Below, in pieces: positions 20,999 through 38,446 of a DNA stretch of 64,000 bases; within the stretch, counting starts at the first letter, position 1, and each line of letters opens with the position of its first letter. The stretch is from a virus, in the IMG/VR virus record IMGVR_UViG_3300025151_000031, positions 1 to 64,000 of that record, one strand, 5' to 3'. The position numbers and the translations under genes were made by a program. The notes below the pieces were generated by a model. The model was not told the origin of the DNA. It searched no databases and worked only from the letters and a program-made list of their open reading frames with translations.

Positions 20999-21018
20999 AT
21001 TTTTAAATTTAAAGAATA

Positions 21019-21099
21019 AGGGGACATACGGGGTTCAAACCCGTATCCATAGCATCAGTGCACGTGTTGACACAGAACCGTTCCAAGAGGTAATCCCCT
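21019..21099 (-). ncRNA. tRNA-like structured RNA candidate between the rIIB-like and exonuclease genes
   Basis: On the minus strand an outer stem AAGAATA-GGGGA pairs with TCCCC-T-TATTCTT (one bulged T, arms extending slightly beyond the given ends), enclosing a perfect 7-bp hairpin ATACGGG-TTTGAAC-CCCGTAT that looks like a T-arm placed just before the 3' acceptor strand. An ACC/GGT mini-stem with a TTGG-containing loop sits at the D-arm position. It departs from a tRNA: loop position 56 is T rather than C, the T-like stem is 7 bp, and no clean 5-bp anticodon stem with a 7-nt loop is visible. Candidates are a degenerate tRNA, a tRNA-like element or an mRNA-processing structure. Folding was done by eye. 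Confidence 0.4.
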
Positions 21100-21113
21100 A
21101 TTCTTAATTAATA

Positions 21114-22292
21114 TTAAAGCTGAGTTAATTCAGTAAGAGTCTTACTGTCTTCTTTAGCTAAAGAGTCATACTCTTCAACTATCTTTTTACGCATCTCAGC
21201 CCATTCTTCATCAGTTTTAGCTGCATAAGTAGAACTATGATATATAGATCCATTTACACCTGCTAGCGAAGAGTGTACAAAATATTGAAGACATCTAGCT
21301 GCACCTGTTTCATCATCAGGCACCGCACCAATATGCATTGGGTCTACAAAAATGTTATGTATCTCACCACTTATACAGTTAATGTACTCTAAACCACCAA
21401 AATGAAGACCTTTAACACATGACATACGATCATTAGTGTTAACATAGCTCCAATCAGGTAATCTATGAGTACAACCAACTTTTATAAAATGATTTGGTTT
21501 ATCATAACCATTGTTGCCTTCGCAAAAGAAAGAATCACCGCCTCTACCCATAATAGCAGGCTGAAACAATCTTTCTTCTACATACTTTGGTAGTCCTTCT
21601 GACTCTATTTCACCAGTGTCAACGTTAAATGTTCTTTTGTACCGTGGTACTTCTTGACATTCACCGTTTTCGTCTGCTTCAAATTTAGTCAAAACTTCTT
21701 CAGATACTTTGTAACCATTTAGTAAACCTTCTTTGGTTATTTTCATTTGATACATAGTAGCTCTTCTTTCTGCAACTTCTTCGCTTAAACCATGTTCTTC
21801 CATCAGCTCTTTCTTTAATTGTGGATGAACATACTTAAGATTAATATAACTAAAGAATCTTTCACAAAATTCTTTACCCCATCCTTTCTTCATTTTAGTA
21901 CGAAGAACAGGGTTTCTTAACCATCTAGTCCACATTTTAACTAATGGCATAAAATCTAATCCTTTGTCCATAGACTCATAGATTCTTTCTACCAATGCTT
22001 CTGGCATCGGGATAGATGATACTATACCATTGTATTGTAAGAAAAACTCACCTGTAGCTTTGTTTACATGAATGTGTTCACACTTATCTTGAATAGTTTT
22101 AGTATAATCTACTATGGTAAGAGCTTCAAAAGCGCCTAAAGCAACTCTGTAGTCTTCCATGTTTTCTGCATTATTAGCTGTTTCAGCTATATCCTGCATT
22201 TTTGCATAGACTTCTTTATTGAAGTCTATACAAAACGGGGTATCCCCATAAGATCCTGAGATCTTATCATCGATAACGTTTATTGATATCAT
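21114..22292 (-). CDS. rIIB-like protein (392 aa)
   Basis: Partner of the rIIA-like gene immediately upstream (2-nt gap). Recognisable features of phage rIIB-like proteins are the N-terminal block with FEALTIVDYTK and the C-terminal segment DRMSCVKGLHFGGLEYINCISGEIHNIFVDP, which parallels the GLHVGSLEYA...V.VNP pattern of the family. The middle region IKMW..WLRNP and the AERRATMYQMKITKEG helix are lineage specific. In T4, rIIA and rIIB are membrane-associated and affect lysis inhibition and exclusion by lambda Rex; the biochemical role of the family is unresolved, and the same role here is not shown. Confidence 0.75.
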   Translation of the reverse strand: MISINVIDDKISGSYGDTPFCIDFNKEVYAKMQDIAETANNAENMEDYRVALGAFEALTIVDYTKTIQDKCEHIHVNKATGEFFLQYNGIVSSIPMPEALVERIYESMDKGLDFMPLVKMWTRWLRNPVLRTKMKKGWGKEFCERFFSYINLKYVHPQLKKELMEEHGLSEEVAERRATMYQMKITKEGLLNGYKVSEEVLTKFEADENGECQEVPRYKRTFNVDTGEIESEGLPKYVEERLFQPAIMGRGGDSFFCEGNNGYDKPNHFIKVGCTHRLPDWSYVNTNDRMSCVKGLHFGGLEYINCISGEIHNIFVDPMHIGAVPDDETGAARCLQYFVHSSLAGVNGSIYHSSTYAAKTDEEWAEMRKKIVEEYDSLAKEDSKTLTELTQL

Positions 22293-22294
22293 AA

Positions 22295-25093
22295 TTAATT
22301 ATTTTTATTTAAAGTTAATAAATTGATAGGTGGTTTCCAACCTAATCGTTGTTTAAATCCTAAGTAAGCATTGAGTTCTTTTTCAAAACCTTCCTTAGCA
22401 CAAGATAATTTAATATCCTCTATTTGATCTAGAAATAAAGCTATTGGCTCTAAGTATAATAACAAATCTTCATAAGCTATAATCATATCTTTGTCTATAA
22501 CATTATTACATGTTACATCTGTAAATACAAATAGTTCTTTAGATTTAGCTTTAATAGCATCTGGATCATCCTGATTAAGAGTGTCAAGAAATGAATTAAA
22601 ATCTATCATTTTCTTAAACATCTTCATCTGAGGTTCTTTTAGAAAGTTTCGCATACTATGAAATCCTGTTGTAGATGCAATATACTCTTGAATTTCTTCA
22701 TAGTTTTCATACATCTCTTTATTAACAAGTTTCATTTTATGCATAAACTTAGAATTTTCAAGTCTCATTGTATAACCAGTATACCATCTTACAATAGAAT
22801 GATCTACACTAAAATGATTATTATCAGTAGCTGTATAAAAGAATTCACTAATATGTTTACAGTAAGGATTAGATGTCATATGTTTGGCTACCTTATCATT
22901 TACTCTAAGCAATTGTGGTCTTTTCCAATTTAATTTGTTATCCTTTAAATATCCTTCAGAAGGCTCATCGCCATAATAAGCTCTAACAGGAGGATATTCC
23001 CAAAAGTAAACAGGCTCTTGATTTTGATCATCATAAGCATTAGGTCTATTAGGCCATACTTGATCATGAGTAGGATTCTGTTTTTCTAGAATCTTAGCAG
23101 CTAATATCAAATCTTCTTCATCCTGTTTATTACCATAATATGTAACAGTTTCAGTATTCATAAGATCTTGAGTACAAGGCTCAACTTTGTCCCAGATAAA
23201 ACCAGATTCACTTCTAGAATATTCAGATCTAGTATCCACTCTTAATGTAAAAGCAACTACCCTCTTTTGAATTTCTCTTCTAGCTTCAGGAGTTAGGTTA
23301 CTTAAAGCAGCTACTTCTTCTCTTTGTTTAGCTACTTTCTTAAATTCAGTTAACCATTCTTCATCCACCTCTATGTCATCATAATGAGAAATGTTCTCAG
23401 AAGACTTAAGAGCTTTAAAAACATTTTGAATTCTAGTTTTTTCTTTTTGATAGAAATTCATTTGTCTTGCTCTCTCCTTGTCATCAGAAATACTACCTAT
23501 AGTAGCAACACGTGCAGTATCAGTACCATCATGTTCAGATATTACATATATAGTCTCACCATCTTGAAGTTGTCTGATAGCATAAGCATCTTTCTTCCAA
23601 GAAAATTGAGTTTCTAGATCTTTAATATATATATTATGTTGTTCTTTACCAAAACCGTCCCAGTTCTCAAGTTTATCTCTTGTAACTGTTTCTTTCTTAG
23701 TACCCCAATCTTTATGTATATATATCTTTTTAATATCTGTGTTTTTACCAAATATAGTAGAAACATTACCAAATTTAATAGAAGTATCACCTGGAAACTT
23801 AGGGTTTAACTGATCTTTGTCAATTATATTAGATAATTTACTAAGAACAGAGTTACCTCTTGAGTCTCTAAGTATAGTACGACAATTAGCAATCCAAGTT
23901 ACAAAATCTGTATCTTCTAACTCTTTTTGAGCTATTTCTGTAGCCTCTGCTGCAGCACGATTAATTAGTTCTTGAACATAAGACTTAGTAGCCTCATTCC
24001 AAATAACTTTTTCACGTGATGGAGTAACGTCTACACCTTCTTGAAGAACAATTTCTTTACCTGTATCAGGATCTCTCATTACTTGTCTCATAGGACATTT
24101 AAAAGCAATAGCGCCCCACATGGTTTCCATTTCTAACTCTTTAAAGTTAATATGGCCATAGTTAATACCTGTAGTGGCATTCTCATCTTTTACTATAACA
24201 ATATGAGGCCTACTAAATACATAACTATCAGAAATAATAAGATTCTTAGAATTATGTAATACATCAGCATGAAAATTCATTTCTTGTTCAGCACCATTTT
24301 CATCTATAACAGTAAATTCAACATTATCAATATATAATAATTGTTCTTCTACTGCATCTATGAAACGACTTCTATTGTGTCTTTTTACACCAAAACTTAT
24401 CTCAGTATAATTAAGAGCGTATGTTTCTTCATAATAAACTTTAGTCCCATCTGAAAATGTTATAAAAGGATTTTCTTTACCTGTTTCTAAGTTAAACCTA
24501 GGTATAATAAAATCTGTTTTATAATTATAACAATTACATTTGAACTTTTTACCGTTGTGTACAGTTTCTATAGTATAGAAATCAACGCCTGTTGAGAGTG
24601 CGACTTTTGCACCCAAACCAAATGCGCCAAAATTCTCGCTAGTATTTCTTTTCGTAGAATAACCTAGCTCTAGAATTCCTTCTAATCTTCTATTACCAAT
24701 ACCTACACCACGATCTAGTACAGTAAATTTATCACAAAATCCAGTACCCTCATTCTGTTTATATGTAAGATGTACTTTATGCTCGTCAAGATTTAAATGT
24801 TCTCTATTATAATAAGAAGCATCATAATTACTATCTGTATATGCTTCTCCTTCTCGCTGAATATAGTAATCTTCTGGTTTCTTTTTACCCTCAATAATTT
24901 CTAATGCCATTTCCTTTTCACGTTGAGAGTCACATGCATTTGTAGTTAACTCTCTAACTGTTGATGGAATTGGCTGAGAATACTGAGAGGCTTGAAGAAT
25001 ATCAAAGACTAGCTTTTCAGCACCTTTGTTGATTTTCTTCTTGACACCCTCTTGTCCGCTTTGGATGTCACGATCAATTGTTTTAATACTCAT
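22295..25093 (-). CDS. rIIA-like GHKL-ATPase protein (932 aa)
   Basis: N-terminal Bergerat-fold (GHKL) ATPase: N-box E48..N52..D55 in VRELTTNACD, G1 box D127-RGVGIG, and a G2-type box FGAFGLGAK at 155-163. The C-terminal roughly 500 residues are unique and helical with many charged residues. This layout, with an rIIB-like gene directly downstream, matches phage rIIA proteins. Histidine kinases, Hsp90 and MutL share the ATPase fold but not this context or the C-terminal part. The start overlaps the upstream gene by 11 bp, indicating operon translation. Confidence 0.8.
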   Translation of the reverse strand: MSIKTIDRDIQSGQEGVKKKINKGAEKLVFDILQASQYSQPIPSTVRELTTNACDSQREKEMALEIIEGKKKPEDYYIQREGEAYTDSNYDASYYNREHLNLDEHKVHLTYKQNEGTGFCDKFTVLDRGVGIGNRRLEGILELGYSTKRNTSENFGAFGLGAKVALSTGVDFYTIETVHNGKKFKCNCYNYKTDFIIPRFNLETGKENPFITFSDGTKVYYEETYALNYTEISFGVKRHNRSRFIDAVEEQLLYIDNVEFTVIDENGAEQEMNFHADVLHNSKNLIISDSYVFSRPHIVIVKDENATTGINYGHINFKELEMETMWGAIAFKCPMRQVMRDPDTGKEIVLQEGVDVTPSREKVIWNEATKSYVQELINRAAAEATEIAQKELEDTDFVTWIANCRTILRDSRGNSVLSKLSNIIDKDQLNPKFPGDTSIKFGNVSTIFGKNTDIKKIYIHKDWGTKKETVTRDKLENWDGFGKEQHNIYIKDLETQFSWKKDAYAIRQLQDGETIYVISEHDGTDTARVATIGSISDDKERARQMNFYQKEKTRIQNVFKALKSSENISHYDDIEVDEEWLTEFKKVAKQREEVAALSNLTPEARREIQKRVVAFTLRVDTRSEYSRSESGFIWDKVEPCTQDLMNTETVTYYGNKQDEEDLILAAKILEKQNPTHDQVWPNRPNAYDDQNQEPVYFWEYPPVRAYYGDEPSEGYLKDNKLNWKRPQLLRVNDKVAKHMTSNPYCKHISEFFYTATDNNHFSVDHSIVRWYTGYTMRLENSKFMHKMKLVNKEMYENYEEIQEYIASTTGFHSMRNFLKEPQMKMFKKMIDFNSFLDTLNQDDPDAIKAKSKELFVFTDVTCNNVIDKDMIIAYEDLLLYLEPIALFLDQIEDIKLSCAKEGFEKELNAYLGFKQRLGWKPPINLLTLNKNN

Positions 25094-25448
25094 AACCTAA
25101 TTTTTGTTTTAATTTATTATAATACTTTTTTTGTTTATTAGTTAGCATCCAGCTTTGTGCTGGAAATACTCTTTGTTTGACACTACCTCCCGTAATATAT
25201 GATTGAGAAGGAATGCCATCTTTTAATCTCTCGTAATACCATTTGTGATTTGATTCTAGTGCCCCAGGTATATCATGATAACGTAATAAGCCATCTGAAT
25301 ATGCCCCACTAGCAGTTTTATATTTACCTTTAGTGTGTGAAAATGCACCAAAATACCTATAATTACCATTGTAAGTAATTGTTAGTAAATCACCTGGTTT
25401 GAGAGATTCATACCACTCATCAAGTGGCGTAATCTCTATTTTATCCAT
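25083..25448 (-). CDS. Hypothetical protein (121 aa)
   Basis: No family recognised. The sequence opens with an acidic segment, then ESLKPGDLLTITYNGNYRYFGAF, a strand-rich stretch that suggests a small beta domain (the PGDLLTI wording is common in barrel-like folds). It is aromatic-rich (many Tyr) with a basic C-terminus. It lies between the nuclease (1-nt gap) and the rIIA-like gene (11-bp overlap), so it is part of the same transcription unit. Confidence 0.6.
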   Translation of the reverse strand: MDKIEITPLDEWYESLKPGDLLTITYNGNYRYFGAFSHTKGKYKTASGAYSDGLLRYHDIPGALESNHKWYYERLKDGIPSQSYITGGSVKQRVFPAQSWMLTNKQKKYYNKLKQKLGYEY

Positions 25449-25449
25449 T

Positions 25450-25890
25450 TTATAAATTTTTAATAATCTCTATTGTTTCTCGTACCTGTTTTTGATTCTT
25501 AGGTACAAATAGTTTACATGATTTGTTGTTGTCTAATAAATGCTTTTTAAACATTTTCCATTTAATAGGAAAACGATCATTAGCAAAACCTTTACACTCT
25601 ATAATCCACGTACGATCTGGACACAAGAAGTCTGGCAAATATGTTACTGCTCTAACTTTTGTATCTGATTTATCCCTATAACCTTTTGTTGATTGTTCAT
25701 AGGTAGTTTCGTCATAATTATATGAATCTAGGAGAGTAAATTTCTCACTTTCGTATTCAAGAGGAATATTATTTTCTTTAAGTGTTTTATATGTAAAAGC
25801 TTCTAATTTTGATCTGAATTTTATTCCGTCTACTGTTGTTGATTTTGAATGTATTTTACCTTTACGTTTTCGTCTATATTTTTTAGCCAT
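25450..25890 (-). CDS. PD-(D/E)XK endonuclease, DUF1064/Holliday-junction type (146 aa)
   Basis: Small phage nuclease. Motifs: E31 in FRSKLEAFTY, D87 in YLPDFLCP, and E98-C-K100 in WIIECKG, the canonical PD...(D/E)xK core. The basic N-terminus (MAKKYRRKRKGK) is typical of DUF1064-like phage nucleases that act on branched DNA. Expected role: resolving replication or recombination intermediates before packaging. Its start lies 61 nt inside the 3' end of the primase gene, a long but credible overlap because the N-terminal TTVDGIKFRSKLEA pattern is family-like. Confidence 0.8.
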   Translation of the reverse strand: MAKKYRRKRKGKIHSKSTTVDGIKFRSKLEAFTYKTLKENNIPLEYESEKFTLLDSYNYDETTYEQSTKGYRDKSDTKVRAVTYLPDFLCPDRTWIIECKGFANDRFPIKWKMFKKHLLDNNKSCKLFVPKNQKQVRETIEIIKNL

Positions 25891-26852
25891 AATTTAGTTT
25901 TATTTAAACCATGAACAACAATGGCATCAGAAATATCTTTGCAATTCCAATCATGAGGTATACAAATATTTGTTAATTCAAATTTATCTGCAATTTTCTT
26001 AGCCATTGTTTGTCCAGGATTATCTAGTGATTCAAAATCATTATCATAAAATACAATTATTCTTTTGAATCTTGTTTGCAACATGCAGATTTGGGATCTA
26101 CTTGGCATTTGCATTTCACTTTGAAAAGCAATTGCTGGAAATCCCATAGCATTAAGGCACATAACATCCTTAAGGGAAGAAGTAATATAAATGTCATCAC
26201 CCTCTTCAGGTAATTGTTTAAGGCCTTGAATATCTTTTTTGCTAGTGTTGCTAAACCACTTAGTTTCTTTTTCATATGGAGCGTAAATTTTATATTTATT
26301 GTTAAACCTAAAAGCATAAGTAGGAGTTTTAACTTTGAATCTATTCTCATTAATCCAGTAATATGTAATAGGCTTAACTGCAAAGATACGCAAAATTTTC
26401 TTACTTATACCATATGGTTTCCAAAATTTCGCATCATCTAAATTCCAATTTCTACTCTTTATTTTAATAATAGTGACTTTCTTGTCAACATCTTGTTTAC
26501 CATAAAGTGTAGGAATCTTGGACCGCATTATTCCATTTGAACTTGCTAACTTTAAATTAAAATCACTGCTAATTTGAATTAAAGCTCCAGTAAATGTAAG
26601 ACCATATTTAAATTGAACATATCCAAAACAATTAAATGTGTGTTCAGGATGTCCAAAATCTTTGTATAATAAATTGCCATTATAATTAACTATAGAGGCT
26701 GAGGGTCTTCTATCTTCTCTCAGCTCACTACAAAATTTTTTATTAAGCTCTTTAAATACAGAACAATAATATTTAAATATGTCAAACTCTGTGATCTTTT
26801 CTAAAATTACTTCCGTGTGTAATATATCGTTACTTGGTCTTGATTTTATCAT
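25830..26852 (-). CDS. DNA primase with Toprim domain (340 aa)
   Basis: DnaG-type small phage primase. The Toprim-like core is clear: DIYITSSLKDVMCLNAMG, then FQSEMQMPSRSQ and IIVFYDNDFESLDNPGQTMAKKIADKF (acidic DND metal site). The N-terminal half has a CHC2-like region without obvious zinc cysteines (SASIVNYNGNLLYKDFGHPEHTFNCFGYVQFKYG). The open frame extends to 26900, but the extra 16 codons lie inside the perfect inverted repeat at 26871-26946, so I start at the Met giving MIKSRPSND. It would prime lagging-strand synthesis with the DnaB-like helicase encoded in the same block. Confidence 0.82.
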   Translation of the reverse strand: MIKSRPSNDILHTEVILEKITEFDIFKYYCSVFKELNKKFCSELREDRRPSASIVNYNGNLLYKDFGHPEHTFNCFGYVQFKYGLTFTGALIQISSDFNLKLASSNGIMRSKIPTLYGKQDVDKKVTIIKIKSRNWNLDDAKFWKPYGISKKILRIFAVKPITYYWINENRFKVKTPTYAFRFNNKYKIYAPYEKETKWFSNTSKKDIQGLKQLPEEGDDIYITSSLKDVMCLNAMGFPAIAFQSEMQMPSRSQICMLQTRFKRIIVFYDNDFESLDNPGQTMAKKIADKFELTNICIPHDWNCKDISDAIVVHGLNKTKLWLKNIDENVKVKYIQNQQQ

Positions 26853-26870
26853 AATAAGTGTGTTAAAAAT

Positions 26871-26946
26871 ATATGGGCAGAGAATTGTAATCAGTTTCAC
26901 AAAGTATAACAGGACGTTAATATTTAATTACTAACTCTGCCCATAT
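26871..26946 (-). ncRNA. Stem-closed structured leader upstream of primase
   Basis: ATATGGGCAGAG (26871-26882) and CTCTGCCCATAT (26935-26946) are perfect 12-nt inverted repeats enclosing 52 nt; a second inner pairing GTAAT/ATTAC extends the stem. On the minus strand it ends about 18 nt before the primase start codon. It could be an mRNA leader structure, a processing site or a hairpin promoter. No T-tract follows, so an intrinsic terminator is unlikely. Confidence 0.55.
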
Positions 26947-26955
26947 AGTATAAAA

Positions 26956-27062
26956 AGAGGAGCTCTCACATGCTTAACTGTCTGTTTCCCTATAGTAACA
27001 ACAAAACAAGTTTACATGTACGACTGAGAATAGCTTAATCTACTTACGCCGAGCACTCCTCT
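26956..27062 (-). ncRNA. Stem-closed structured element downstream of the SSB-like gene
   Basis: On the minus strand AGAGGAG-TG-CTC pairs with GAG-AG-CTCCTCT across about 85 nt (7 bp, a T.G and a G.A, then 3 bp). The 3' arm is followed by TTTTTATA, so the element could also act as a long terminator. It lies 10 nt from the element at 26871-26946, giving a tandem pair in a 217-nt intergenic region. It contains GCGTAAGTA (minus strand), also present at 37526-37534. Confidence 0.5.
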
Positions 27063-27069
27063 AAATCAA

Positions 27070-27825: not shown

Positions 27826-27845
27826 ATTTAAATTTGTTTTTAATA

Positions 27846-28307
27846 TTAATAATTATTTGACCAATCATCTGCTTTAGATTCCATGTAATCCATGTCCTCT
27901 GTAGAATCATACAATTCAGGCTTACTTGGTACTTTACTTTCATCTATACCTAACTCTTCAGCTGCATCAGCAATGTCTTCTATTTTTTGAAGCGCGTCAT
28001 CAGCCTCTTGAGATTCCTCTCTAATTTGATCTTCAAGATCTAATTGATTAGGATCAGAAGATTCCATTGTCATATCATCAACAAAATTAAAAGATAATTT
28101 TTTAACTTTTTTAGCTTTTTTACCTTTTAGTGTTGGATGATCAAACATTTGTTTTACTTCCCATGTTTCTAAATTGTATTTAGTTTTAATACCTGTTCTG
28201 TCTATACCGTTTTCTAGATCTTCTAAGATCATTGAAGTTGTTATAGTTTCAGGAGTTGTATTATTATTCTCCTGCATTTGATTGTTGTTTTCTCTAATTT
28301 CAACCAT
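27846..28307 (-). CDS. Hypothetical acidic protein with HTH-like segment (153 aa)
   Basis: ILEDLENGIDRTGIKTKYNLETWEVKQMFDHPTLKG (residues about 27-62) looks like a small helix-turn-helix or SANT-like module; KKAKKVKKLSF is basic, and the C-terminal half is strongly acidic (DLEDQIREESQEADDALQ...). No enzyme motif is present. It lies between the SSB-like and Sak4-like genes, so an accessory or adaptor role in replication or recombination is plausible but unproven. Confidence 0.6.
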   Translation of the reverse strand: MVEIRENNNQMQENNNTTPETITTSMILEDLENGIDRTGIKTKYNLETWEVKQMFDHPTLKGKKAKKVKKLSFNFVDDMTMESSDPNQLDLEDQIREESQEADDALQKIEDIADAAEELGIDESKVPSKPELYDSTEDMDYMESKADDWSNNY

Positions 28308-28324
28308 TTTTGTGTGTTTTAAAA

Positions 28325-30489: not shown

Positions 30490-31688
30490 AATTTTATTTG
30501 AGTTAATTTGTCAATCCAATTGACATTAGTTAAACCTTTTACTGCTGATTTTAACCATTTTTCCTCTTGAGTTTCTTTTACATATAAAATTATTATTTTT
30601 CCAACTTTATTTTCTTGAAATCTTAATAATCTACCAACTCTTTGAATCATAGTTAAAGATTTACTAGTTAACCCACATATAATACCTATATCTGCATCTG
30701 GAACATCAAAGCCTTGATTTAAAGCTTTTGTTGAACACAGTACATTAATATCACCATTTCTAAATGATTGTAATGCTTGTTCTTTTTGTTTTTTAGTTTT
30801 GCCTGAATGATAAGAATCTGAAAACTCGCCTAAAGATAGATTTATTTCTTCTGTAAATGCGTTTGCACCTGCAAATGTTAAAATCTTCTTTTTGCTACCT
30901 AATACTTTTACTAGTATTTGTTTTATAGCAGTGATTTTATTTAAAGCAAAATCAACTTGTAGTTTTCTTTCTCTAATAGCTTTATAAAATAATACAGCCC
31001 ATTGTTTTTCATGTCCAGGCGCATTACTACTAGCTATAATTCTTTTAGCTTCATTAAAAGCATCAAATTGTCCTAATTTATATTTATAGTGAACAAACAT
31101 GTTATTTGCTTTTTTATATTTTGCTAATTCTTCTTCTCTAAATTCTATTGGCATGCAGTATATTTCATATGGAGATACTAGTCCTAATTTAACGCACTGA
31201 TCTAGTTTTAATTCATATACAGTTGGAAACCAATCATTAAGTATAGCTTTATACTCAAGATCTTCAGGCTGTGTTGCAGTCATACATAATATACGATCAT
31301 AAGTATTATTTTTAAAGAACTTAATATGTTCTTTACTTAAACCTAAATGTACTTCGTCTGCTACAACAACAGTATAATTCTGATCTTGTAGTTTATATGC
31401 AGATTGATAACAAACAAAATCTATTCTGTCAACGATATCAGAATAATCCCATTTGTGAAATTCACTTTCAAATTGGTCTTGTAATTGTATGGTAGGAACC
31501 AAAACTATTGCATTAGCATCAGGATTTCTTCTTAAAGTTTCACCTGCTGCTAATACTCCTACACGAGTCTTACCAAATCCAGTACCTGCAATTACAGATC
31601 CTTTAAATCCAGCTTTAGCCCATGCATTTAGTGCTTTTCTTTGTTCTTCGTCTTTTATTTTTATACAGTTACTCATAGTTTTTATCAT
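30486..31688 (-). CDS. Superfamily 2 DNA/RNA helicase (400 aa)
   Basis: Motif I GTGFGKT (35-41), motif II DEVH (111-114), motif III TAT (137-139), then a C-terminal RecA domain with VLCSTKALNQGFDVPDADI and the motif VI-like MIQRVGRLLRFQ. This is a compact DEAD/DEAH-type helicase comparable to phage UvsW-like enzymes that remodel branched DNA or replication origins. Met1 or Met5 could be the start; a 4-bp overlap with the upstream gene favours Met1. Confidence 0.85.
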   Translation of the reverse strand: MIKTMSNCIKIKDEEQRKALNAWAKAGFKGSVIAGTGFGKTRVGVLAAGETLRRNPDANAIVLVPTIQLQDQFESEFHKWDYSDIVDRIDFVCYQSAYKLQDQNYTVVVADEVHLGLSKEHIKFFKNNTYDRILCMTATQPEDLEYKAILNDWFPTVYELKLDQCVKLGLVSPYEIYCMPIEFREEELAKYKKANNMFVHYKYKLGQFDAFNEAKRIIASSNAPGHEKQWAVLFYKAIRERKLQVDFALNKITAIKQILVKVLGSKKKILTFAGANAFTEEINLSLGEFSDSYHSGKTKKQKEQALQSFRNGDINVLCSTKALNQGFDVPDADIGIICGLTSKSLTMIQRVGRLLRFQENKVGKIIILYVKETQEEKWLKSAVKGLTNVNWIDKLTQIKL

Positions 31689-32098
31689 AATATTTGATTT
31701 AATTTTAATAGTTTTTCTACTTCGTTTAGTCTAATAGTTAAGTTGTCTATAATTTCATACATATCAGTTTCAACATAAGGATTATTCTTTAGTCTACCTG
31801 TTACTCTTTCATACATAATTCTATAATCAGCATACATTCTAAGTAAATCTTCATGTTGATTATAATTATGCATAACAGAAGCGTGATCTCTATCAAAATG
31901 AGATCCTATTTCACCTAATGTCATTTTTAATTCATCTTTTAATAAAACATAACAAATTCTTCTAGCATCTACCAAATTTCTAACTCTAGATTTACTTGTA
32001 AGTAATTGTACACTTGTACCAGTAGCTTTAGCTACTATAAATATAATATGTTTGGCCTCTTTATTTTTAGGGCTACCAAGATCTAATTTATATTTCAT
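31685..32098 (-). CDS. Stand-alone DnaA domain IV-like DNA-binding protein (137 aa)
   Basis: Residues about 20-80 match the DnaA C-terminal DNA-binding domain: VAKATGTSVQLLTSKSRVRNLVDARRICYVLL, then KMTLGEIGSHFDRDHASVMHNY. The DRDHASV segment is the signature helix (cellular form GRDHSTV) that reads DnaA boxes. The AAA+ ATPase domain is absent, and the C-terminus is helical. In the family, this domain binds double-stranded origin boxes; here it could mark the phage origin or recruit helicase, supported by flanking polymerase and helicase genes. Confidence 0.82.
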   Translation of the reverse strand: MKYKLDLGSPKNKEAKHIIFIVAKATGTSVQLLTSKSRVRNLVDARRICYVLLKDELKMTLGEIGSHFDRDHASVMHNYNQHEDLLRMYADYRIMYERVTGRLKNNPYVETDMYEIIDNLTIRLNEVEKLLKLNQIL

Positions 32099-32103
32099 AA
32101 TAA

Positions 32104-34005
32104 TTATTTTTGCCAGGTTTCAGATATATGTGTATCTGCTTTTAATAAACCATTAGTTACTATTACTTGAGCTGCTTCTTCCATTAGCTCAGTCATTTTA
32201 ATTTTCCATTCATCTGCATAATCTGCTTTACAAATAGTATCAATTTGATCATGTACAGTCATTACTAGTTTAACAGGTATTTCATTGTCTCTAATATAAT
32301 CATGCATTAATACTAAAGCACACTTAGTCATATCTGCACTTGCGCCTTGAATAGGAGTATTCTTAGACGCACGTTCAATACTACCAAGTTCCATACTTGC
32401 TGATCTATGATTCCATATTTTGTCATACCATTTATCAAACCATCTTTTTCTATTATAAGGTGGAAACGTTTTAATATATCCAAATCGTTTTCCAAATCCT
32501 CCTAATTTAGTTAAGAACCCACCTATGGCTGGGAAAGCTGCAAAGTATTTACTAATTAAATCTTTTGCATCTTGCATTGATATATTCAATGTGTCGGCCA
32601 ATTTGTGTGGCCCCATACCATAGGCTAAGCCAAAGTTTATAGCTTTGACATTGGTTCTTAATTTAGAGTGCTTAGGACAATTGCATTTAGATTTGTTGAC
32701 AATATAAGAACAACCATCTTCAGCACTCTTTGACCATTTATCACCATATACAAGTTCAGCACATACACTATGTAAGTCTTGTCCTTGTTCTAACGCTTCT
32801 ATCCATACAGGATCTTTAGAACCAAATGCAATAACATTTAATTCTTGGCTAGAATAATCAGAGCTTACAAATACCCAACCTTCTGGTGCTACAAAACAAT
32901 TTCTAAATGTATTATTAGCAGGAATTTGTTGCATATTAGGATCACTAGAACTAATACGACCAGTATCTAATATTTGATGAAAGTTAGTGTGAATTTTATT
33001 ATCACTTTTAAAGTATTTAAAGAATGGTTTACCATATGAAGTACATAACTTCATATATTCTTTATATTTAATATACTTCTTAACTAACCCATAAGAAGCA
33101 TATTTATATAATTCTTTACCATTCACATTTTCAAGATTTGGAATAATAACTTTAAATACAGCTAATACTTGTTTAGGTGAATCCCAATTCACACCAACTT
33201 TTCTCAATTCTTTTTGATTAGTAAATAAGTCTCCTTGTATCCATTTTAATACAAAGTCTTGTAATCTAGGATCATTAAGTATTATATTATCTAATTCAAC
33301 ATAATAATCTTTTGATTTATCTTCATTCAATTTACTTATTTCTAACCATTTTTCTCTATCTAGATCTAATCCATTATATTCTATTTCAGCTAATGCTAAT
33401 ACTGCTTTATTTTCTAAATCTACTACATTAGTTAATAGTTCTTGTTTTATCTGTTTTAATTGTTTTTTTCTTATTTTACATAAATATTCTACATCTTTGG
33501 CACCATAATTTATTTGTGTATAAGTATATGGTTTACCTTCTAATTTAATAAATTGATTTCTTACGCTTTTATCCAATGTTGCATCACAATATTTCTCTAC
33601 TAATGCATCCAATGCATATCTTTTACCTTTTCTTCCGCAATTTAATATTCTTTCTACTAAATATGTATCATAAACATTAGCTAGAGATATATCTGTCCAT
33701 TGCTTAATAAATTTATAATCAAATTTAGCATTTTGTAGTATTTTTATAGTGGTTTCATTTTGTAGTATGTCTTTAAGAGGTTCAATTGATATAACTCTTG
33801 TATCAATAACCCATTGATGATCTTCATCTCCTATTTGAAACATTATCATTTTCTTACAAGTAAAGTCCATTCCTTCTGTTTCAGTATCAACAGCTATTAC
33901 AGTACGCTGTGATAAATATTCTACAGCTTTATCTATATTAGCCCAATCATCTTTAATCCCTTCAAATTTTAAATCTTTATGTCCTATAAAATGTACATGT
34001 TTCAT
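32104..34005 (-). CDS. polA: DNA polymerase, family A with 3'-5' exonuclease (633 aa)
   Basis: Proofreading domain: Exo I D40-T-E42, Exo II N92/D96 (NAKFD), Exo III Y167-D171. Polymerase domain: DTGRISSSDPNMQQIP, motif A D383 (SSDYSSQEL), motif B R450..K454...Y462 (RTNVKAINFGLAYG), motif C H585-D586-Q587 where most family A enzymes have H-D-E. Between motifs A and B is an insert with C432, C441, C443 and H446 that could bind zinc. No 5'-nuclease domain is present; that activity is the separate gene at 20222-20998. It is the replicative polymerase of the phage. Confidence 0.93.
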   Translation of the reverse strand: MKHVHFIGHKDLKFEGIKDDWANIDKAVEYLSQRTVIAVDTETEGMDFTCKKMIMFQIGDEDHQWVIDTRVISIEPLKDILQNETTIKILQNAKFDYKFIKQWTDISLANVYDTYLVERILNCGRKGKRYALDALVEKYCDATLDKSVRNQFIKLEGKPYTYTQINYGAKDVEYLCKIRKKQLKQIKQELLTNVVDLENKAVLALAEIEYNGLDLDREKWLEISKLNEDKSKDYYVELDNIILNDPRLQDFVLKWIQGDLFTNQKELRKVGVNWDSPKQVLAVFKVIIPNLENVNGKELYKYASYGLVKKYIKYKEYMKLCTSYGKPFFKYFKSDNKIHTNFHQILDTGRISSSDPNMQQIPANNTFRNCFVAPEGWVFVSSDYSSQELNVIAFGSKDPVWIEALEQGQDLHSVCAELVYGDKWSKSAEDGCSYIVNKSKCNCPKHSKLRTNVKAINFGLAYGMGPHKLADTLNISMQDAKDLISKYFAAFPAIGGFLTKLGGFGKRFGYIKTFPPYNRKRWFDKWYDKIWNHRSASMELGSIERASKNTPIQGASADMTKCALVLMHDYIRDNEIPVKLVMTVHDQIDTICKADYADEWKIKMTELMEEAAQVIVTNGLLKADTHISETWQK

Positions 34006-34235
34006 TACTCAAATTTTTTAAATGCATTTATATTATCTGCTTTTCTAAAGTCTTTTACTAATTCTATTACTGTGTCTGCATAATCAACTGTATAGCTTTC
34101 ACCTTGCCACCAAAATGATGTTTTATTATCAGCTAAAGCTTGTTCATATGTAGGCACAAAATCATTGTCAAATGTTCCGTCTTGAATCATTTGACTAATC
34201 CATTTCATATGTCCCATTACATTAAATTTAATCAT
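34005..34235 (-). CDS. Hypothetical small protein (76 aa)
   Basis: No family recognised. Mixed alpha/beta with WISQMIQDGTFDNDF and SFWWQGESYTVDYADTVIELVKDF. Its stop shares one base with the polymerase start, so the two are translationally coupled. The start codon lies at the end of the T-tract of the hairpin at 34243-34273, so either transcription reads through that hairpin or a later Met (residue 7 or 10) is used. Confidence 0.55.
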   Translation of the reverse strand: MIKFNVMGHMKWISQMIQDGTFDNDFVPTYEQALADNKTSFWWQGESYTVDYADTVIELVKDFRKADNINAFKKFE

Positions 34236-34236
34236 T

Positions 34237-34273
34237 AGAAAAAATAAGGGAGAACTATTAATTCTCCCTTATT
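34237..34273 (-). terminator. Intrinsic terminator-like hairpin before the polymerase operon
   Basis: Perfect 12-bp stem AATAAGGGAGAA (34243-34254) / TTCTCCCTTATT (34262-34273) with a 7-nt loop; on the minus strand it runs into TTTTTTC. It would end transcripts from genes at 34417 and above, or from the promoter at 34357-34364. The next start codon is immediately beyond it. Confidence 0.8.
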
Positions 34274-34356
34274 ACACACACTTTTACTTGGTTTTTATTA
34301 GATTACGGAAATGTTATTCAATTATTAATCAATAATATAATAATCTCTTAACCAAG
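34274..34356 (-). ncRNA. Small RNA or attenuator leader upstream of the polymerase operon
   Basis: Downstream of a TATATTTG box, the minus strand folds with CTTGGTT (34350-34356) pairing AACCAAG (34287-34293) and an inner TAATCT/AGATTA-type pairing (34341-34346 with 34300-34305), then reaches the terminator at 34237-34273. Promoter, structured body and terminator together define a transcript of roughly 115 nt with no ORF. It may be an independent sRNA or an attenuator controlling the DNA polymerase genes. Confidence 0.5.
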
Positions 34357-34364
34357 CAAATATA
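34357..34364 (-). promoter_or_regulatory. Bacteroidota-type -7 promoter box
   Basis: Minus strand TATATTTG matches the Bacteroidota consensus TAnnTTTG. It lies directly before the structured transcript at 34274-34356. The upstream DNA (34365-34416) is almost pure A/T with no clear TTTG -33 element. Confidence 0.45.
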
Positions 34365-34416
34365 ATAAATTTTATTATAATAAACTAATACTATAATAAA
34401 ATATTTTATATTATTT

Positions 34417-35010
34417 TTACATCTCTAACTCATCTTCCAGAACTCCCTGATTTACAGGCACTTCCACTCGTTGAGTATCAGATTCTAATATAGTGTGTTG
34501 AATGATTTGTCCTTTTCTTAATAAAACTACTTGAGTTCTAGAGAAAATATAATCACCATCATGTAAAATGTAATCGCCATCTTTACCTGCTCTTTTAGCA
34601 GCTCTTTCAATGTTAGCGCTTTCCCATTCATTGGCTTCAGTTGATTCTACAATCTGAATTCTAAATGAATGATCAGGCATACTTAATGGCTTTGGATTTA
34701 ATATATTAAGATCCATCATTTCACCTCTTTCAGTTTCATACCATTTACCTGCATCACTAAAATCAATACCAAATTGTTTAGACGCATCTGAAGGTTCAGC
34801 AGTTGTCCATGATCTTCTAGCACCAGTACTAAATCTTGAATCACTAGCATTTAATAATGCTAATGCATTCATAGGACGATCTTTTAATTGGATCTTTTCT
34901 GCAAATTCTAATTGTACTTTATTACCACCAGCTACTTTTCTTGCTGATACTAATAAACATTGACCTGGTTGTAGGGTAGCTATTGTACCACTATTAAGAG
35001 TATTTTTCAT
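34417..35010 (-). CDS. Hypothetical protein (197 aa)
   Basis: No family recognised. The N-terminal part TIATLQPGQCLLVSARKVAGGNKVQLEFAEKI suggests beta strands; the middle RRSWTTAEPSDASKQFGIDF and the segment KDGDYILHDGDYIFSRTQVVLLRKGQII are strand-rich, and the end (VLEDELEM) is acidic. The acidic tail and early-block position would be compatible with a second single-strand-binding or structural DNA protein, but there is no direct motif. Confidence 0.6.
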   Translation of the reverse strand: MKNTLNSGTIATLQPGQCLLVSARKVAGGNKVQLEFAEKIQLKDRPMNALALLNASDSRFSTGARRSWTTAEPSDASKQFGIDFSDAGKWYETERGEMMDLNILNPKPLSMPDHSFRIQIVESTEANEWESANIERAAKRAGKDGDYILHDGDYIFSRTQVVLLRKGQIIQHTILESDTQRVEVPVNQGVLEDELEM

Positions 35011-35028
35011 AATATTCTTTTTTTAATG

Positions 35029-35325
35029 TTATTTAATTAATTTTTTGAAATCCTTTCCATTTAATACTAAATGTATGTTTGCTATTTCCTTTTGTATACT
35101 GCTAAATGGCATTGCTATTGGCCTATTTTGTGCAAATATAACTTTGTTATTAGCTATCCAAGGGCAAATTTCACCTTCCCTTGTTATTGGAGATGTACAC
35201 TCCTGTATAAATATTAGTGCTTTTAATTGATCACTAAATATCATGGTTTGTACATCACATAATTCTATTTCTTGTGCTGTGTGGTTTCCCAACAAATCAC
35301 ATTCATATTTTACTTTGTACATCAT
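35029..35325 (-). CDS. Hypothetical protein (98 aa)
   Basis: No recognised family or motif. Strand-rich N-terminus (MMYKVKYECDLLGNHTAQEIELCDV) with three Cys, then PITREGEICPWIANNKVIFAQ and a basic C-terminus. It is 18 nt upstream of the 197-aa gene on the minus strand, so probably cotranscribed. Confidence 0.5.
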   Translation of the reverse strand: MMYKVKYECDLLGNHTAQEIELCDVQTMIFSDQLKALIFIQECTSPITREGEICPWIANNKVIFAQNRPIAMPFSSIQKEIANIHLVLNGKDFKKLIK

Positions 35326-35343
35326 TTTGTGGTTTTAAAGTTT

Positions 35344-35520
35344 TTATTTATCTTTCCATAATTTTTCTGTCAATTTATATAAATCAAATAGTTCTTTATA
35401 TAATCCTTGACTTATTTCTACTTGTTTTTCTAATTCCTTTATAATTACTCTTTGTCTGTAAATTATTAAAGCTGACATTATAAGTACAAGTATTGTTAAT
35501 ATTGTAATTAATTGTTCCAT
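35344..35520 (-). CDS. Small single-pass membrane protein with coiled coil (58 aa)
   Basis: Frame MEQLITILTILVLIMSALII... encodes one hydrophobic segment (residues 4-20), then YRQRV and a charged amphipathic helix ending KLWKDK. The N-terminal anchor plus helical tail resembles small phage membrane proteins, including inner-membrane spanin-like forms, but no lysis gene neighbours it. The start overlaps the end of the 52-aa gene by 13 nt. Confidence 0.5.
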   Translation of the reverse strand: MEQLITILTILVLIMSALIIYRQRVIIKELEKQVEISQGLYKELFDLYKLTEKLWKDK

Positions 35521-35666
35521 GGTTCCATTATTTTATTGTGCCAATACCACCATTTATTCTCATTTTTATTCTTCATTGATTGTATTTGCATTTCTATTGC
35601 ATAACTAGTTGCTGCTTTCTTCCCTTTCAACAACTTTATTATTTTATAAATTAATTTATCTCTCAT
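35508..35666 (-). CDS. Small basic protein (52 aa)
   Basis: Frame MRDKLIYKIIKLLKGKKAATS... ending NKIMEPWNN. The N-terminal 20 residues are strongly basic and amphipathic; the tail is Trp-rich (NKWWYWHNK). No family recognised. It fills the gap between the 103-aa and 58-aa genes and overlaps the latter by 13 nt, which supports a real gene. Confidence 0.45.
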   Translation of the reverse strand: MRDKLIYKIIKLLKGKKAATSYAIEMQIQSMKNKNENKWWYWHNKIMEPWNN

Positions 35667-35675
35667 AATCTAACA

Positions 35676-35987
35676 TTATAATATTCCTCCATTTTGATGA
35701 TAATAATAGTCAAATGATTCATCATGCTCATCATATTCTTCCATCTTACTCTCAATCCATTCATATAAATGTGATGTTATAGGACATACTTTATATTGTT
35801 TATGTAATAGTATTAATTCTAACTGCTCTAAATTCTTTTCACGATCACTATATATTGCTAATAACCTATTTTTCTTTCTTATCATTTTTAATATATTTAT
35901 CAAATGATTATCATCTAGATCTTTGATAAGTATATTTTTATTGTCTTTTGTTTTCCAATATACTGGAAATTCTATATTTTGTTGCAT
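35676..35987 (-). CDS. Hypothetical protein (103 aa)
   Basis: No family recognised. Helical middle with basic RKKNRLLAIYSDREKNLEQLELILLHKQYKV, and an acidic, Tyr-rich end (KMEEYDEHDESFDYYYHQNGG). Gene spacing on both sides is under 10 nt, so it belongs to the run of small early genes. Confidence 0.5.
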   Translation of the reverse strand: MQQNIEFPVYWKTKDNKNILIKDLDDNHLINILKMIRKKNRLLAIYSDREKNLEQLELILLHKQYKVCPITSHLYEWIESKMEEYDEHDESFDYYYHQNGGIL

Positions 35988-35993
35988 AACTAT

Positions 35994-36107
35994 TTATTTT
36001 ATTCGTTTATTAATCCATTCTTCTATTTGTGTAACAACGTACATTCCTGCTACAAATGCAGCTATTAATGCAAGGGCTATTGCAAACCCATATAATATTA
36101 AATCCAT
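35994..36107 (-). CDS. Tiny single-pass membrane protein (37 aa)
   Basis: Frame MDLILYGFAIALALIAAFVA..., a single strongly hydrophobic helix (residues 3-25) followed by a basic amphipathic tail (TQIEEWINKRIK). A size and topology like this is common among phage early membrane proteins (host takeover or exclusion). Function unknown. It is 6 nt upstream of the 103-aa gene. Confidence 0.45.
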   Translation of the reverse strand: MDLILYGFAIALALIAAFVAGMYVVTQIEEWINKRIK

Positions 36108-36136
36108 ATTTTATTTGTTTTAAAAGTTTAATAATT

Positions 36137-36266
36137 AATAGTAGTGCCAAGCTTGTTTGTCGGTTATTTTATTTGGCTTTTATTAGGTTCCGCGAGTTTA
36201 CCAGGCCTATTGTCCATCTGTTATCTCACCCTAATGTCAAAGTGTTGTGCACACACATCTACTATT
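36137..36266 (-). ncRNA. Stem-closed structured RNA candidate, 130 nt
   Basis: AATAGTAG (36137-36144) pairs with CTACTATT (36259-36266). Inside, on the minus strand, ATTAGG pairs CCTAAT and the adjacent GTGAG pairs CTCGC, and GCCAA pairs TTGGC near the 3' end. Multiple nested helices in a 160-nt region without a convincing ORF suggest a folded RNA. No T-tract, no tRNA arms. Confidence 0.5.
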
Positions 36267-36268
36267 GA

Positions 36269-36613
36269 TTAAAATTCTTGTTTAAGATTAGTATTTCTAA
36301 GATTTCTAACACTATTATAATACGAAGTATTTGGCTTTGCTTTCCATCTAACATGAGGTACATCATTAACAAAAATCGTAGGTAATATAGAATAACCTCT
36401 TAAAAATGCTGAATTTCCATCATCTTTTACATTATGTTTTTTAAGATAATAGTCTATTTGACTAATAATAGTTTTCTTAGTTACACTACCATCATTATAA
36501 TTTCTTTCAGTATAATCATTATAAATAGGATATGATACTGTATTATATATCTTATTATTTACTTTCTTTACATTCTTTAAATGTATTATTAAGTTTCCAA
36601 TTTCTTGTTTCAT
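36269..36613 (-). CDS. Hypothetical protein (114 aa)
   Basis: No family recognised. Basic, Asn/Tyr-rich: an N-terminal helix (IGNLIIHLKNVKKVNNKIYN), middle YTERNYNDGSVTKKTIISQIDYYLKKHNV, and ILPTIFVNDVPHVRWKAKP. Flanked by structured non-coding elements on both sides (36137-36266 and 36645-36676), so it may be a separately controlled early gene. Confidence 0.5.
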   Translation of the reverse strand: MKQEIGNLIIHLKNVKKVNNKIYNTVSYPIYNDYTERNYNDGSVTKKTIISQIDYYLKKHNVKDDGNSAFLRGYSILPTIFVNDVPHVRWKAKPNTSYYNSVRNLRNTNLKQEF

Positions 36614-36644
36614 CTTTATTTTATTTATTTAATTATTAAATTGA

Positions 36645-36676
36645 ATTAGGGTAAGAACTTTATAACTTACCCTAAT
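36645..36676 (-). other. Perfect 11-bp hairpin between early genes
   Basis: ATTAGGGTAAG (36645-36655) and CTTACCCTAAT (36666-36676) with a 10-nt loop. On the minus strand it is followed by TCAATTTAAT rather than a T-run, so terminator function is doubtful. It lies in the leader of the 114-aa gene, 32 nt before its start codon. Confidence 0.55.
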
Positions 36677-36697
36677 CCCTGTGTCATCTATTGCATT

Positions 36698-36910
36698 TTA
36701 TAGTTTATCTAAGTGTTTTGCAATGTAATTACTTATGTATCCACCTAAATAGATACATATTAATGAAGCAATGCATATTAACACATCTAAACTAACATAT
36801 TTGAGGAATAGATAACAACCACCACAAAATAAAGCGATGATTAGTGACATCATACTTATCACTAATAATATTCTAATGGCCATGATCATATAGTTTTTAA
36901 TTGTTTTCAT
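36698..36910 (-). CDS. Two-helix membrane protein (70 aa)
   Basis: Two hydrophobic segments: about residues 8-37 (MIMAIRILLVISMMSLIIAL and following) and about residues 42-60 (VLICIASLICIYLGGYI), with a basic end. It could be a holin-like or host-membrane-modifying protein, but nothing in the context (no endolysin, no spanin) supports lysis. Bracketed by hairpin elements at 36645-36676 and 36934-37001. Confidence 0.5.
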   Translation of the reverse strand: MKTIKNYMIMAIRILLVISMMSLIIALFCGGCYLFLKYVSLDVLICIASLICIYLGGYISNYIAKHLDKL

Positions 36911-36933
36911 TTGTTATTGATTTTATGGTTAGT

Positions 36934-37001
36934 ACTCCTGAAAGACTGTCAATCTTTATACCCCATTTTGATTTAGAATTGCGACTTATTGCTACAGGAG
37001 T
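36934..37001 (-). other. Stem-closed structured element
   Basis: ACTCCTG (36934-36940) and CAGGAGT (36995-37001) enclose 54 nt. On the minus strand the 3' part contains an AAAGA/TCTTT hairpin. It is the leader of the 70-aa membrane protein gene and adjacent to a second such element at 37013-37064. Confidence 0.45.
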
Positions 37002-37012
37002 TAGGTGTGAAG

Positions 37013-37064
37013 GAGAGTAAGGTTGATCCACATGTTATTTAATGCTTCATTTTCACTTACTCTC
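37013..37064 (-). other. Stem-closed structured element (9-bp closing arms)
   Basis: GAGAGTAAG (37013-37021) and CTTACTCTC (37056-37064) are perfect inverted repeats around 34 nt. It sits directly after the stop of the 132-aa gene on the minus strand. No T-tract follows, so it is not a canonical terminator. Confidence 0.5.
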
Positions 37065-37079
37065 GTTCATTATAAATAT

Positions 37080-37478
37080 TTATTCTTCCTTTCCAAACAT
37101 CTTTTTCTCATGTTCATCCATCTCTGGTTCTTGGAAACCTTCTTCATCAATATCATGATCCATTCCCTTAATGTGATCTGCTATAGCAGCATCTTTTGCA
37201 GCTTTCACATTTTTATCCCAATCTTCTAGATATTTTGTATCATCAAAGCCTTTAATCTCATCCCATTTTAATTCTGGAACAATACCAAGCTCTTCTAATT
37301 TATCTAGACATCTCTCTAATCCATTCTTTAATCTTTTAATTGCATCTCGATCATAATCATTTATAGTAATGCTATGTTTCATTACATCTAATAGATCTTT
37401 TTGTAATCTAGATTCAGAATATTTCTTATTCTCATCTTTCATTATTTGAATTACTGTATTAACTGTGTTTTTACTCAT
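37080..37478 (-). CDS. Hypothetical acidic helical protein (132 aa)
   Basis: No family recognised. Entirely helical pattern with DRDAIKRLKNGLERCLDKLEELGIV and a highly charged C-terminus (KGMDHDIDEEGFQEPEMDEHEKKMFGKEE). First of the minus-strand genes after the busy control region 37479-37726. The size and charge resemble early phage regulators, but there is no specific evidence. Confidence 0.55.
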   Translation of the reverse strand: MSKNTVNTVIQIMKDENKKYSESRLQKDLLDVMKHSITINDYDRDAIKRLKNGLERCLDKLEELGIVPELKWDEIKGFDDTKYLEDWDKNVKAAKDAAIADHIKGMDHDIDEEGFQEPEMDEHEKKMFGKEE

Positions 37479-37600
37479 GGTTTTAAATATTAAATTGTTT
37501 TAATTTGTATGTATTTTGCGTTACATACTTACGCTAAGTGTTATATTATACTATTGATTAAATATATGTACAGTACAATATGTGGCAAAATGTATAGTAT
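37479..37600. promoter_or_regulatory. Control region with several short motifs
   Basis: Upstream of the 132-aa gene. Contains TACTTACGC (37526-37534, also at 27041-27049), AAGTGTTATAT (37536-37546, also upstream of the portal and scaffold genes), and a TGTAC-A-GTACA palindrome (37567-37577) that could be an operator. GTATG...CATAC repeats bracket 37509-37527. No coding frame. Confidence 0.4.
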
Positions 37601-37673
37601 GATGGCTAGTCAGCGTTATCGCAAGCGTAATAATAATTACTGCTTTGTTGTTGCCTTTGCTGACTAGACCATC
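37601..37673. ncRNA. Long-stem hairpin element (14 bp closing stem)
   Basis: GATGG-CTAGTCAGC (37601-37614) pairs with GCTGACTAG-A-CCATC (37659-37673), 14 bp with one bulged A. Inside is a second hairpin, AAGC-GTAAT/ATTAC-T-GCTT with an AATA loop (about 37622-37644). One of the strongest folds in the window. Strand unknown; minus is likely from the neighbouring genes. Confidence 0.55.
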
Positions 37674-37690
37674 AATATATATGTCCAAAT

Positions 37691-38431: not shown

Positions 38432-38446
38432 TTTAAATTATTTTAT

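What the first reader, a model, noticed from the sequence alone, without database searches (positions are those of the whole stretch)
21019..37673. A family of stem-closed elements between early genes: candidate RNA or hairpin-promoter system
At least eight intergenic spots in the minus-strand block carry complementary arms, mostly 7-14 bp, bracketing about 50-130 nt (21019, 26871, 26956, 34287, 36137, 36934, 37013, 37601), with a ninth large fold at 38455 on the plus side. Arm sequences differ, so they are not copies of one repeat; the architecture is what recurs. N4 virion RNAP uses hairpin promoters, which makes hairpin recognition by the crAss-like virion RNAP a testable idea; mRNA processing by host nucleases is the main alternative.
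Basis: inference. Interest (0 to 1): 0.7.

Follow-up and report, generated by a model that had tools for sequence, protein, structure and literature searches.

The report
Swappable structured RNAs between early genes
In a marine crAss-like phage and its relatives, the gaps between early genes hold many different small folded RNAs, each sealed by a long stem and exchanged between related phages, and none matches the public RNA library; this points to an RNA toolkit made early in infection whose function is still unknown.

Summary
All eight paired-arm elements exist; 26870, 37013 and 37601 are individually non-random, 36137 and 36934 weak. Across nine genomes strong stem-closed elements are about 12-fold enriched in early-strand gaps (13 versus 1.1 shuffled) and absent from late-strand gaps (0 versus 0.35).

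They are not N4-type DNA hairpin promoters. They act as RNA on the early strand: wobbles in closing stems are G-U on the sense strand (14 versus 0 A-C in the strongest class), and in two motifs closing stems change by compensation while the insides stay conserved. The 26870 element belongs to one such motif, found once per positive record (12 of 29) but at different gene boundaries. At the rIIB/exo boundary relatives carry different closed elements, plain hairpins or this motif, swapped even between phages about 94% identical. The 38455 fold is a conserved noncoding RNA seen in 93 other loci, with 22 of 32 pairs compensated; Rfam has no match.

Best reading: early transcripts carry exchangeable small-RNA cassettes whose closing helix punctuates or stabilises the message. 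A conserved promoter-like block overlaps 37601, the only place where the hairpin-promoter idea survives. Function is inferred; there are no expression data.

The parts
21012..21105 (-). Stem-closed element between rIIB and exo; closing AAGAATAGGGG/CCCCTTATTCTT; inside has a T-arm-like hairpin (ACGGGTTTGAACCCCGT). Weakly tRNA-like.
   Evidence: Fold z -2.6; the same gap holds different elements or plain hairpins in relatives; ARAGORN calls no tRNA at default, only when relaxed
26870..26947 (-). R1 motif: variable closing stem, internal loop, GUAAU/AUUAC helix, conserved GUUAUACUUUGUG; upstream of primase, followed by a T-run
   Evidence: 0/300 shuffles; covariation; model hit 76.4 bits
26956..27062 (-). 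Stem-closed multi-helix element directly upstream of R1, followed by TTTTT
   Evidence: Fold z -3.1; relatives in L146 and L148, which also carry R1 next to it
34357..34364 (-). Host-type (Bacteroidota) -7 motif TATATTTG at the start of the 34287 element
   Evidence: Sequence; conserved in L004, L006, L008, L009
34283..34360 (-). Stem-closed element, 5' leader or small RNA in front of the DNA polymerase operon
   Evidence: Fold z -3.6; stem kept in L004 and L006, 5' arm not cleanly kept in L008 and L009
34236..34270 (-). Intrinsic-terminator-like hairpin after the 34287 element
   Evidence: AAGGGAGAA...TTCTCCCTTATTTTTT; conserved in L004, L006, L008, L009
36132..36271 (-). Stem-closed element with several inner helices; weak support
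   Evidence: fold z -0.9; stem 9.7% of shuffles; no relative found
36934..37001 (-). Stem-closed element (ACTCCTG/CAGGAGT); weak support
   Evidence: fold z -1.35; no relative found
37013..37064 (-). Stem-closed element (GAGAGTAAG/CTTACTCTC), tandem with the previous one
   Evidence: 0.7% of shuffles; fold z -3.6
37600..37674 (-). Stem-closed element whose 3' arm lies in the promoter-like block PE2
   Evidence: Fold z -6.3; relatives have a short-loop dyad at the same place
37538..37626 (-). PE2: conserved promoter-like block of about 90 bp (dyad, CCACAnnTTG box, ATAATATAACAC)
   Evidence: One per locus in 80 loci; the window itself is a weak member (E 0.12); alignment and dyad test
38041..38165 (-). 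PE1: conserved promoter-like block in the divergent region upstream of the gene 37727-38020
   Evidence: Iterated profile, 95 loci
38447..38454 (+). Host-type -7 motif TATATTTG just upstream of the 38455 RNA
   Evidence: Sequence; late-strand gaps are enriched for TAnnTTTG, 20 versus 4.7 shuffled
38455..38690 (+). Divergent member of a conserved noncoding RNA of about 260 nt on the late strand
   Evidence: 88-90% identity over 300 bp with L004/L005/L006/L007/L020; profile finds 93 other loci; 22 of 32 pairs with two-sided changes

Best explanation
The elements are modules of the early transcripts, not DNA signals. Each has a closing helix and an inside. The closing helix sits at a gene boundary and, I infer, punctuates the message: it terminates or attenuates transcription, or marks and protects an RNA end. 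The inside is an exchangeable cassette, in several cases a conserved structured small RNA. Shown: enrichment on the early strand only; RNA-level selection; conserved insides with covarying closing stems in two motifs; exchange of whole elements at one boundary; the same cassette at different boundaries in different genomes, one copy each. Inferred: that the insides are released or act in trans as early small RNAs, and on what. The separate 38455 RNA reads as a late-strand noncoding RNA gene with a host-type promoter motif.
For: Early-only enrichment 13 versus 1.1, late 0 versus 0.35. Closing-stem wobbles G-U versus A-C 24:4, 15:1, 14:0 with rising stem strength. R1: 85.7% of cells paired, 12 of 22 pairs with two-sided changes, slid controls near 50%. 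The motif after DNA polymerase: 100% paired, 5 pairs with two-sided changes. R1 once in each of 12 of 29 records (one extra marginal window hit, E 0.04), at several different gene boundaries. rIIB/exo gap: different closed elements, R1 or plain hairpins in relatives; L150 and L151, 95% and 93% identical on the two sides, differ there. Tandem arrays of distinct closed elements. A tRNA-Met starts 4 nt after PE2 in L011, showing that a functional small RNA can use that slot.
Against: No expression data. Only R1, the 26956 element, the 34287 element and partly 37601 have relatives with the same inside or site; 21019, 36137, 36934 and 37013 have none. TTTT follows 16 of 54 elements (6% in controls), so intrinsic termination fits only some. 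No target or partner is known. Sequences are related, so covariation counts are inflated.
Confidence: 0.6

Rival explanations
1. Ordinary intrinsic terminators or 3'-end stabilising hairpins with unusually long loops; the insides are mostly neutral filler.
For: Plain GC hairpins occupy the same rIIB/exo gap in L151, L157, L164, L171, L177-L180 and L184; T-runs follow 16 of 54 elements versus 6% in controls; all R1 copies in the seed alignment have nearby T-runs.
Against: Conserved insides with covariation; one R1 copy per genome at varying sites; many closing stems lack a T-run; tandem copies.
Confidence: 0.2
2. Hairpin promoters for the virion RNA polymerase, as in N4.
For: crAss-like virion RNAP transcribes early genes (PMC10136315); the elements are early-strand only; PE2 overlaps 37601 and has a dyad, score 875 versus 808 with sd 20 after partner shuffling.
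Against: No shared bases or motif across elements; loops of 34-114 nt; sense-strand G-U bias; several lie after stop codons and in tandem; the conserved promoter-like sequences are PE1 and PE2, about one each per genome.
Confidence: 0.06
3. Small mobile RNA or DNA cassettes that use hairpin loops as insertion sites and have no benefit to the phage.
For: The same cassette at different sites and different cassettes at one site.
Against: One copy per positive record; closing stems change together with insides (L150 versus L151); no mobility gene or target duplication was seen, though neither was searched for systematically.
Confidence: 0.09
4. Sites for RNase III-type processing of polycistronic early mRNA.
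For: Long helices at gene boundaries; T7 early mRNA is processed in this way (own knowledge).
Against: Many stems are 9-12 bp and the plain hairpins at the same sites only 6-10 bp, short for RNase III; would not by itself explain conserved insides.
Confidence: 0.05

Closest known systems
N4 vRNAP early promoter hairpins (PMC4496689)
   Same: Inverted repeats in the early region of a phage with a virion RNAP
   Different: N4: short template-strand hairpin with required conserved bases. Here: long loops, no common bases, structure selected in the sense RNA
Intrinsic terminators
   Same: GC-rich stem at gene ends, some followed by a T-run; plain hairpins occupy the same site in relatives
   Different: Loops of 25-150 nt with conserved, covarying structure; often no T-run
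Y RNAs bound by TROVE/Ro60
   Same: Ends paired in a closing stem; crAss001 has a TROVE gene beside closed stems
   Different: No TROVE gene in the window's own record or in 25 related records
Phage tRNA genes
   Same: Small structured RNA genes in the early region; L011 has a tRNA-Met right after PE2
   Different: Almost all elements are not tRNAs; 21019 shows only a T-arm-like hairpin
Unassigned phage or metagenome structured RNAs (PMC2864571; ROOL/GOLLD, PMC12286853)
   Same: Conserved structured RNAs of unknown function carried by phages
   Different: No Rfam match in the window or in the relatives scanned at gathering cut-offs; small, numerous and swapped at fixed sites rather than one large family
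Hammerhead ribozymes
   Same: A few relatives (L022, L078, L082) have complete CUGAUGA...GAAA cores among the early RNA units
   Different: Rfam scores are below the gathering cut-off (27 versus 48.5 bits); none found in the window

Membership tests
N4-type hairpin promoter | Short stem with a tiny loop | tested here: not met
   Loops 34-114 nt in the eight elements
N4-type hairpin promoter | Conserved bases shared by all copies | tested here: not met
   No common sequence; enriched 8-mers in early gaps mostly trace to R1, the 34287 site and terminators
N4-type hairpin promoter | Initiation by the virion RNAP at the hairpin | not testable with these tools
   Needs in vitro transcription
Intrinsic terminator | GC-rich stem followed directly by a U-run | tested here: inconclusive
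   16 of 54 elements have TTTT nearby versus 6% in controls
Y RNA | TROVE/Ro60 partner in the same genome | tested here: not met
   records may be incomplete
tRNA (21019 element) | Cloverleaf recognised by ARAGORN and Rfam | tested here: not met
   only a low-scoring call with relaxed settings
Conserved structured RNA (R1, motif after DNA polymerase) | Compensatory changes above shuffled and slid controls | tested here: met
Conserved structured RNA (38455 RNA) | Compensatory changes | tested here: met
   22 of 32 pairs with two-sided changes; no shuffled control was run for this alignment
Any Rfam 15 family | Score at the gathering cut-off | tested here: not met
   Window and relatives. Positive control, tRNA in L011, was found
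Hammerhead ribozyme (relatives only) | Complete core and Rfam gathering score | tested here: inconclusive
   Core complete in 4 distinct sequences, 1 hit in shuffles; Rfam 27 bits, E 0.0013, cut-off 48.5

The most novel reading that the evidence does not exclude
The early region is an RNA arsenal: an array of interchangeable small RNAs, punctuated by closing stems and, in some relatives, hammerhead-like self-cleaving cores, released at the start of infection as trans-acting (perhaps end-joined) RNAs that counter host defences and are exchanged between phages as anti-defence protein genes are.
Probability: 0.15. Interest if true: 0.92.

Novelty: new variant of a known kind. Interest (0 to 1): 0.72.

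Why it matters
If right, a marine crAss-like phage group uses a fast-exchanging set of structured RNAs in its earliest transcripts, the place where phages usually keep takeover and anti-defence genes. It yields several testable RNA families absent from Rfam, a conserved noncoding RNA of about 260 nt, and two candidate early promoter blocks that make the question of how crAss-like virion RNAPs choose start sites directly testable.

Tried and rejected
Y-RNA/TROVE partnership: no TROVE gene in the window's record or in 25 relatives. Shared hairpin-promoter motif in early gaps: none found. True tRNA at 21019: not called at default, weak call only when relaxed. Rfam: no match in the window or relatives at gathering cut-offs, nor in the loose E-value scans except the hammerhead hits in a short stretch of L082. 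Host origin of the 38455 RNA: an exact 26-mer from it is absent from genome contigs; annotated phage records gave no blastn match. phi14:2 and crAss001 regions: a few long-loop stems, not compared with shuffles, so not interpreted. Marginal second R1 hit in the window at 19704 (E 0.04): treated as chance. PE2 as an RNA structure: no consensus fold. Whole-region DNA similarity to annotated phages: none. A first attempt to hand in this report was malformed; nothing was changed in the evidence.

Full report
Setting. The window is most of a 67.3-kb virus record of a crAss-like phage, apparently marine or environmental: RIIA/RIIB, exonuclease, primase, DnaB, helicase and PolA on the minus (early) strand; GroES-like protein, terminase, portal and capsid on the plus strand. 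Eighty relatives were fetched through PolA (64-70% identity, similar gene order), 62 stretches through the 38455 RNA and 46 through the exonuclease.

Observation. All eight elements exist. Three are individually significant by stem and six by fold; 36137 and 36934 are weak. In nine genomes strong closed stems number 13 against 1.1 expected in early-strand gaps and 0 against 0.35 in late-strand gaps. The density is therefore not what AT-rich sequence gives by chance, and it is confined to the early strand.

RNA, not DNA. If a stem works in the sense RNA, G-U pairs are tolerated in the sense strand and A-C are not; for a stem that works as DNA, or in the other strand, that bias should vanish or reverse. 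In de-duplicated elements oriented by the early genes the counts are 24 to 4, 15 to 1 and 14 to 0 as the stem-strength threshold rises. The 26870 element belongs to a motif, R1, with a variable closing stem, a fixed internal loop, a GUAAU/AUUAC helix and GUUAUACUUUGUG. On a sequence-only alignment of 12 loci 85.7% of cells pair, 12 of 22 pairs have two-sided changes, and slid controls drop to about 50%. A covariance model finds it in 12 of 29 records, one strong copy each, after the resolvase, before primase, before exo, or elsewhere. A second motif just after PolA is 100% paired with five two-sided pairs. Other recurrent insides are listed. The 26956 element has two relatives, L146 and L148, again beside R1.

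Exchange. In the rIIB/exo gap the window has a closed element with a T-arm-like hairpin; relatives have several unrelated closed elements, R1, or a plain GC hairpin. L150 and L151 are 95% and 93% identical on the two sides yet differ by closed element versus plain hairpin. L179, L182, L184 and L187 keep similar GGGGGAG stems and the same downstream GATATG with loops from 3 to 54 nt. In that subset the stem is the constant part of the site and the inside is the variable part; between more distant phages the stem changes too.

34287. This element begins at a host-type -7 motif and is followed after a short GTGTGTAA tract by an intrinsic-terminator-like hairpin, directly upstream of the gene 34005-34235 and PolA. 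Promoter motif, tail and terminator are kept in L004, L006, L008 and L009, although the 5' arm is not cleanly kept in L008 and L009. It reads as a small RNA gene or an attenuated leader of the polymerase operon.

38455. The plus-strand fold is a divergent member of an RNA of about 260 nt that a profile finds in 93 other loci, with 22 of 32 predicted pairs showing two-sided changes. It usually lies upstream of the GroES-like gene but in some relatives other genes intervene, so it is probably not a cis element of that gene. It has no Rfam match.

Promoter-like blocks. Looking for what could start early transcription gave PE2 (37538-37626), a ~90-bp block with one hit in each of 80 loci (the window itself is a weak member, E 0.12), and PE1 in the divergent region, found in 95 loci; both carry a TGTGAGYGTGTG-like box in many relatives. 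PE2 has a dyad supported modestly by partner shuffling (875 versus 808, sd 20; relatedness is not controlled). The 37601 stem has its 3' arm in this block, while in relatives the dyad has a short loop. Directly after PE2 a start codon follows in 22 of 49 sequences, a stem-closed element in 9, a tRNA-Met in 1, and 17 are unclassified. In a few relatives hammerhead cores lie among the RNA units: 4 distinct versus 1 hit in shuffled sequence; the best scores Rfam E 0.0013 but is below the gathering cut-off. Late gaps, not early ones, are enriched for host-type TAnnTTTG (20 versus 4.7; early 9 versus 7.35), in line with published virion-RNAP-driven early transcription in crAss-like phages (PMC10136315).

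Mechanism and limits. I commit to the closing helix as punctuation and the exchangeable inside as small-RNA cargo. Shown: distribution, RNA-level selection, conservation of some insides, exchange. Inferred: processing, release, trans action, any anti-defence role, and promoter function of PE1 and PE2. There are no expression data, the genomes are related, gene calls in relatives are mechanical, and four window elements (21019, 36137, 36934, 37013) have no relative with the same inside.

Comparison. As a membership claim 'N4-type hairpin promoter' fails on geometry, shared bases and strand of selection; 'Y RNA' fails for lack of TROVE; 'intrinsic terminator' fits only some elements. The set is best called new families of phage structured RNA with an unusual modular, site-swapping organisation.

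Noticed in passing
window 37538-37626 (-) and 38041-38165 (-): Two conserved promoter-like blocks, PE2 (80 loci) and PE1 (95 loci), on the early strand, sharing a TGTGAGYGTGTG-like box in many relatives; candidate virion-RNAP promoters.
   Followed up: partly
L022:about 1011, L078:about 6635, L082:about 647 and 972, L143 downstream of PE2: Hammerhead-ribozyme-like cores among the early RNA units of a few relatives; Rfam scores below the gathering cut-off.
   Followed up: partly
L079:7714-7780 and about 13 relatives: Highly conserved motif of about 60 nt (CCAACTGA..GCTTTACGCTAAAGGTTGGACGAGAT), possibly pseudoknotted, in the early block.
   Followed up: partly
L196 (crAss001) 43266-44170, next to the TROVE gene gp96: Gap with closed stems and a motif (GTGTATNATAGANTTACTTCAA-like) repeated about five times, two copies inside what look like split tRNA genes.
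   Followed up: partly
window 31685-32098 (-): 137-aa early protein with a DnaA C-terminal DNA-binding domain (Pfam PF08299, E 2.8e-16).
   Followed up: no
window 38299-38433 (+): Unlisted 44-codon open frame for a basic peptide (MAKLNSFKFLG...YRGQGR) between the divergent region and the 38455 RNA; no PHROG match.
   Followed up: partly
window 38762-39037 (+): Phage GroES-like co-chaperonin (PHROG 3188) next to the 38455 RNA.
   Followed up: no
L011:6857-6932: tRNA-Met (CAT) starting 4 nt after the PE2 block.
   Followed up: partly
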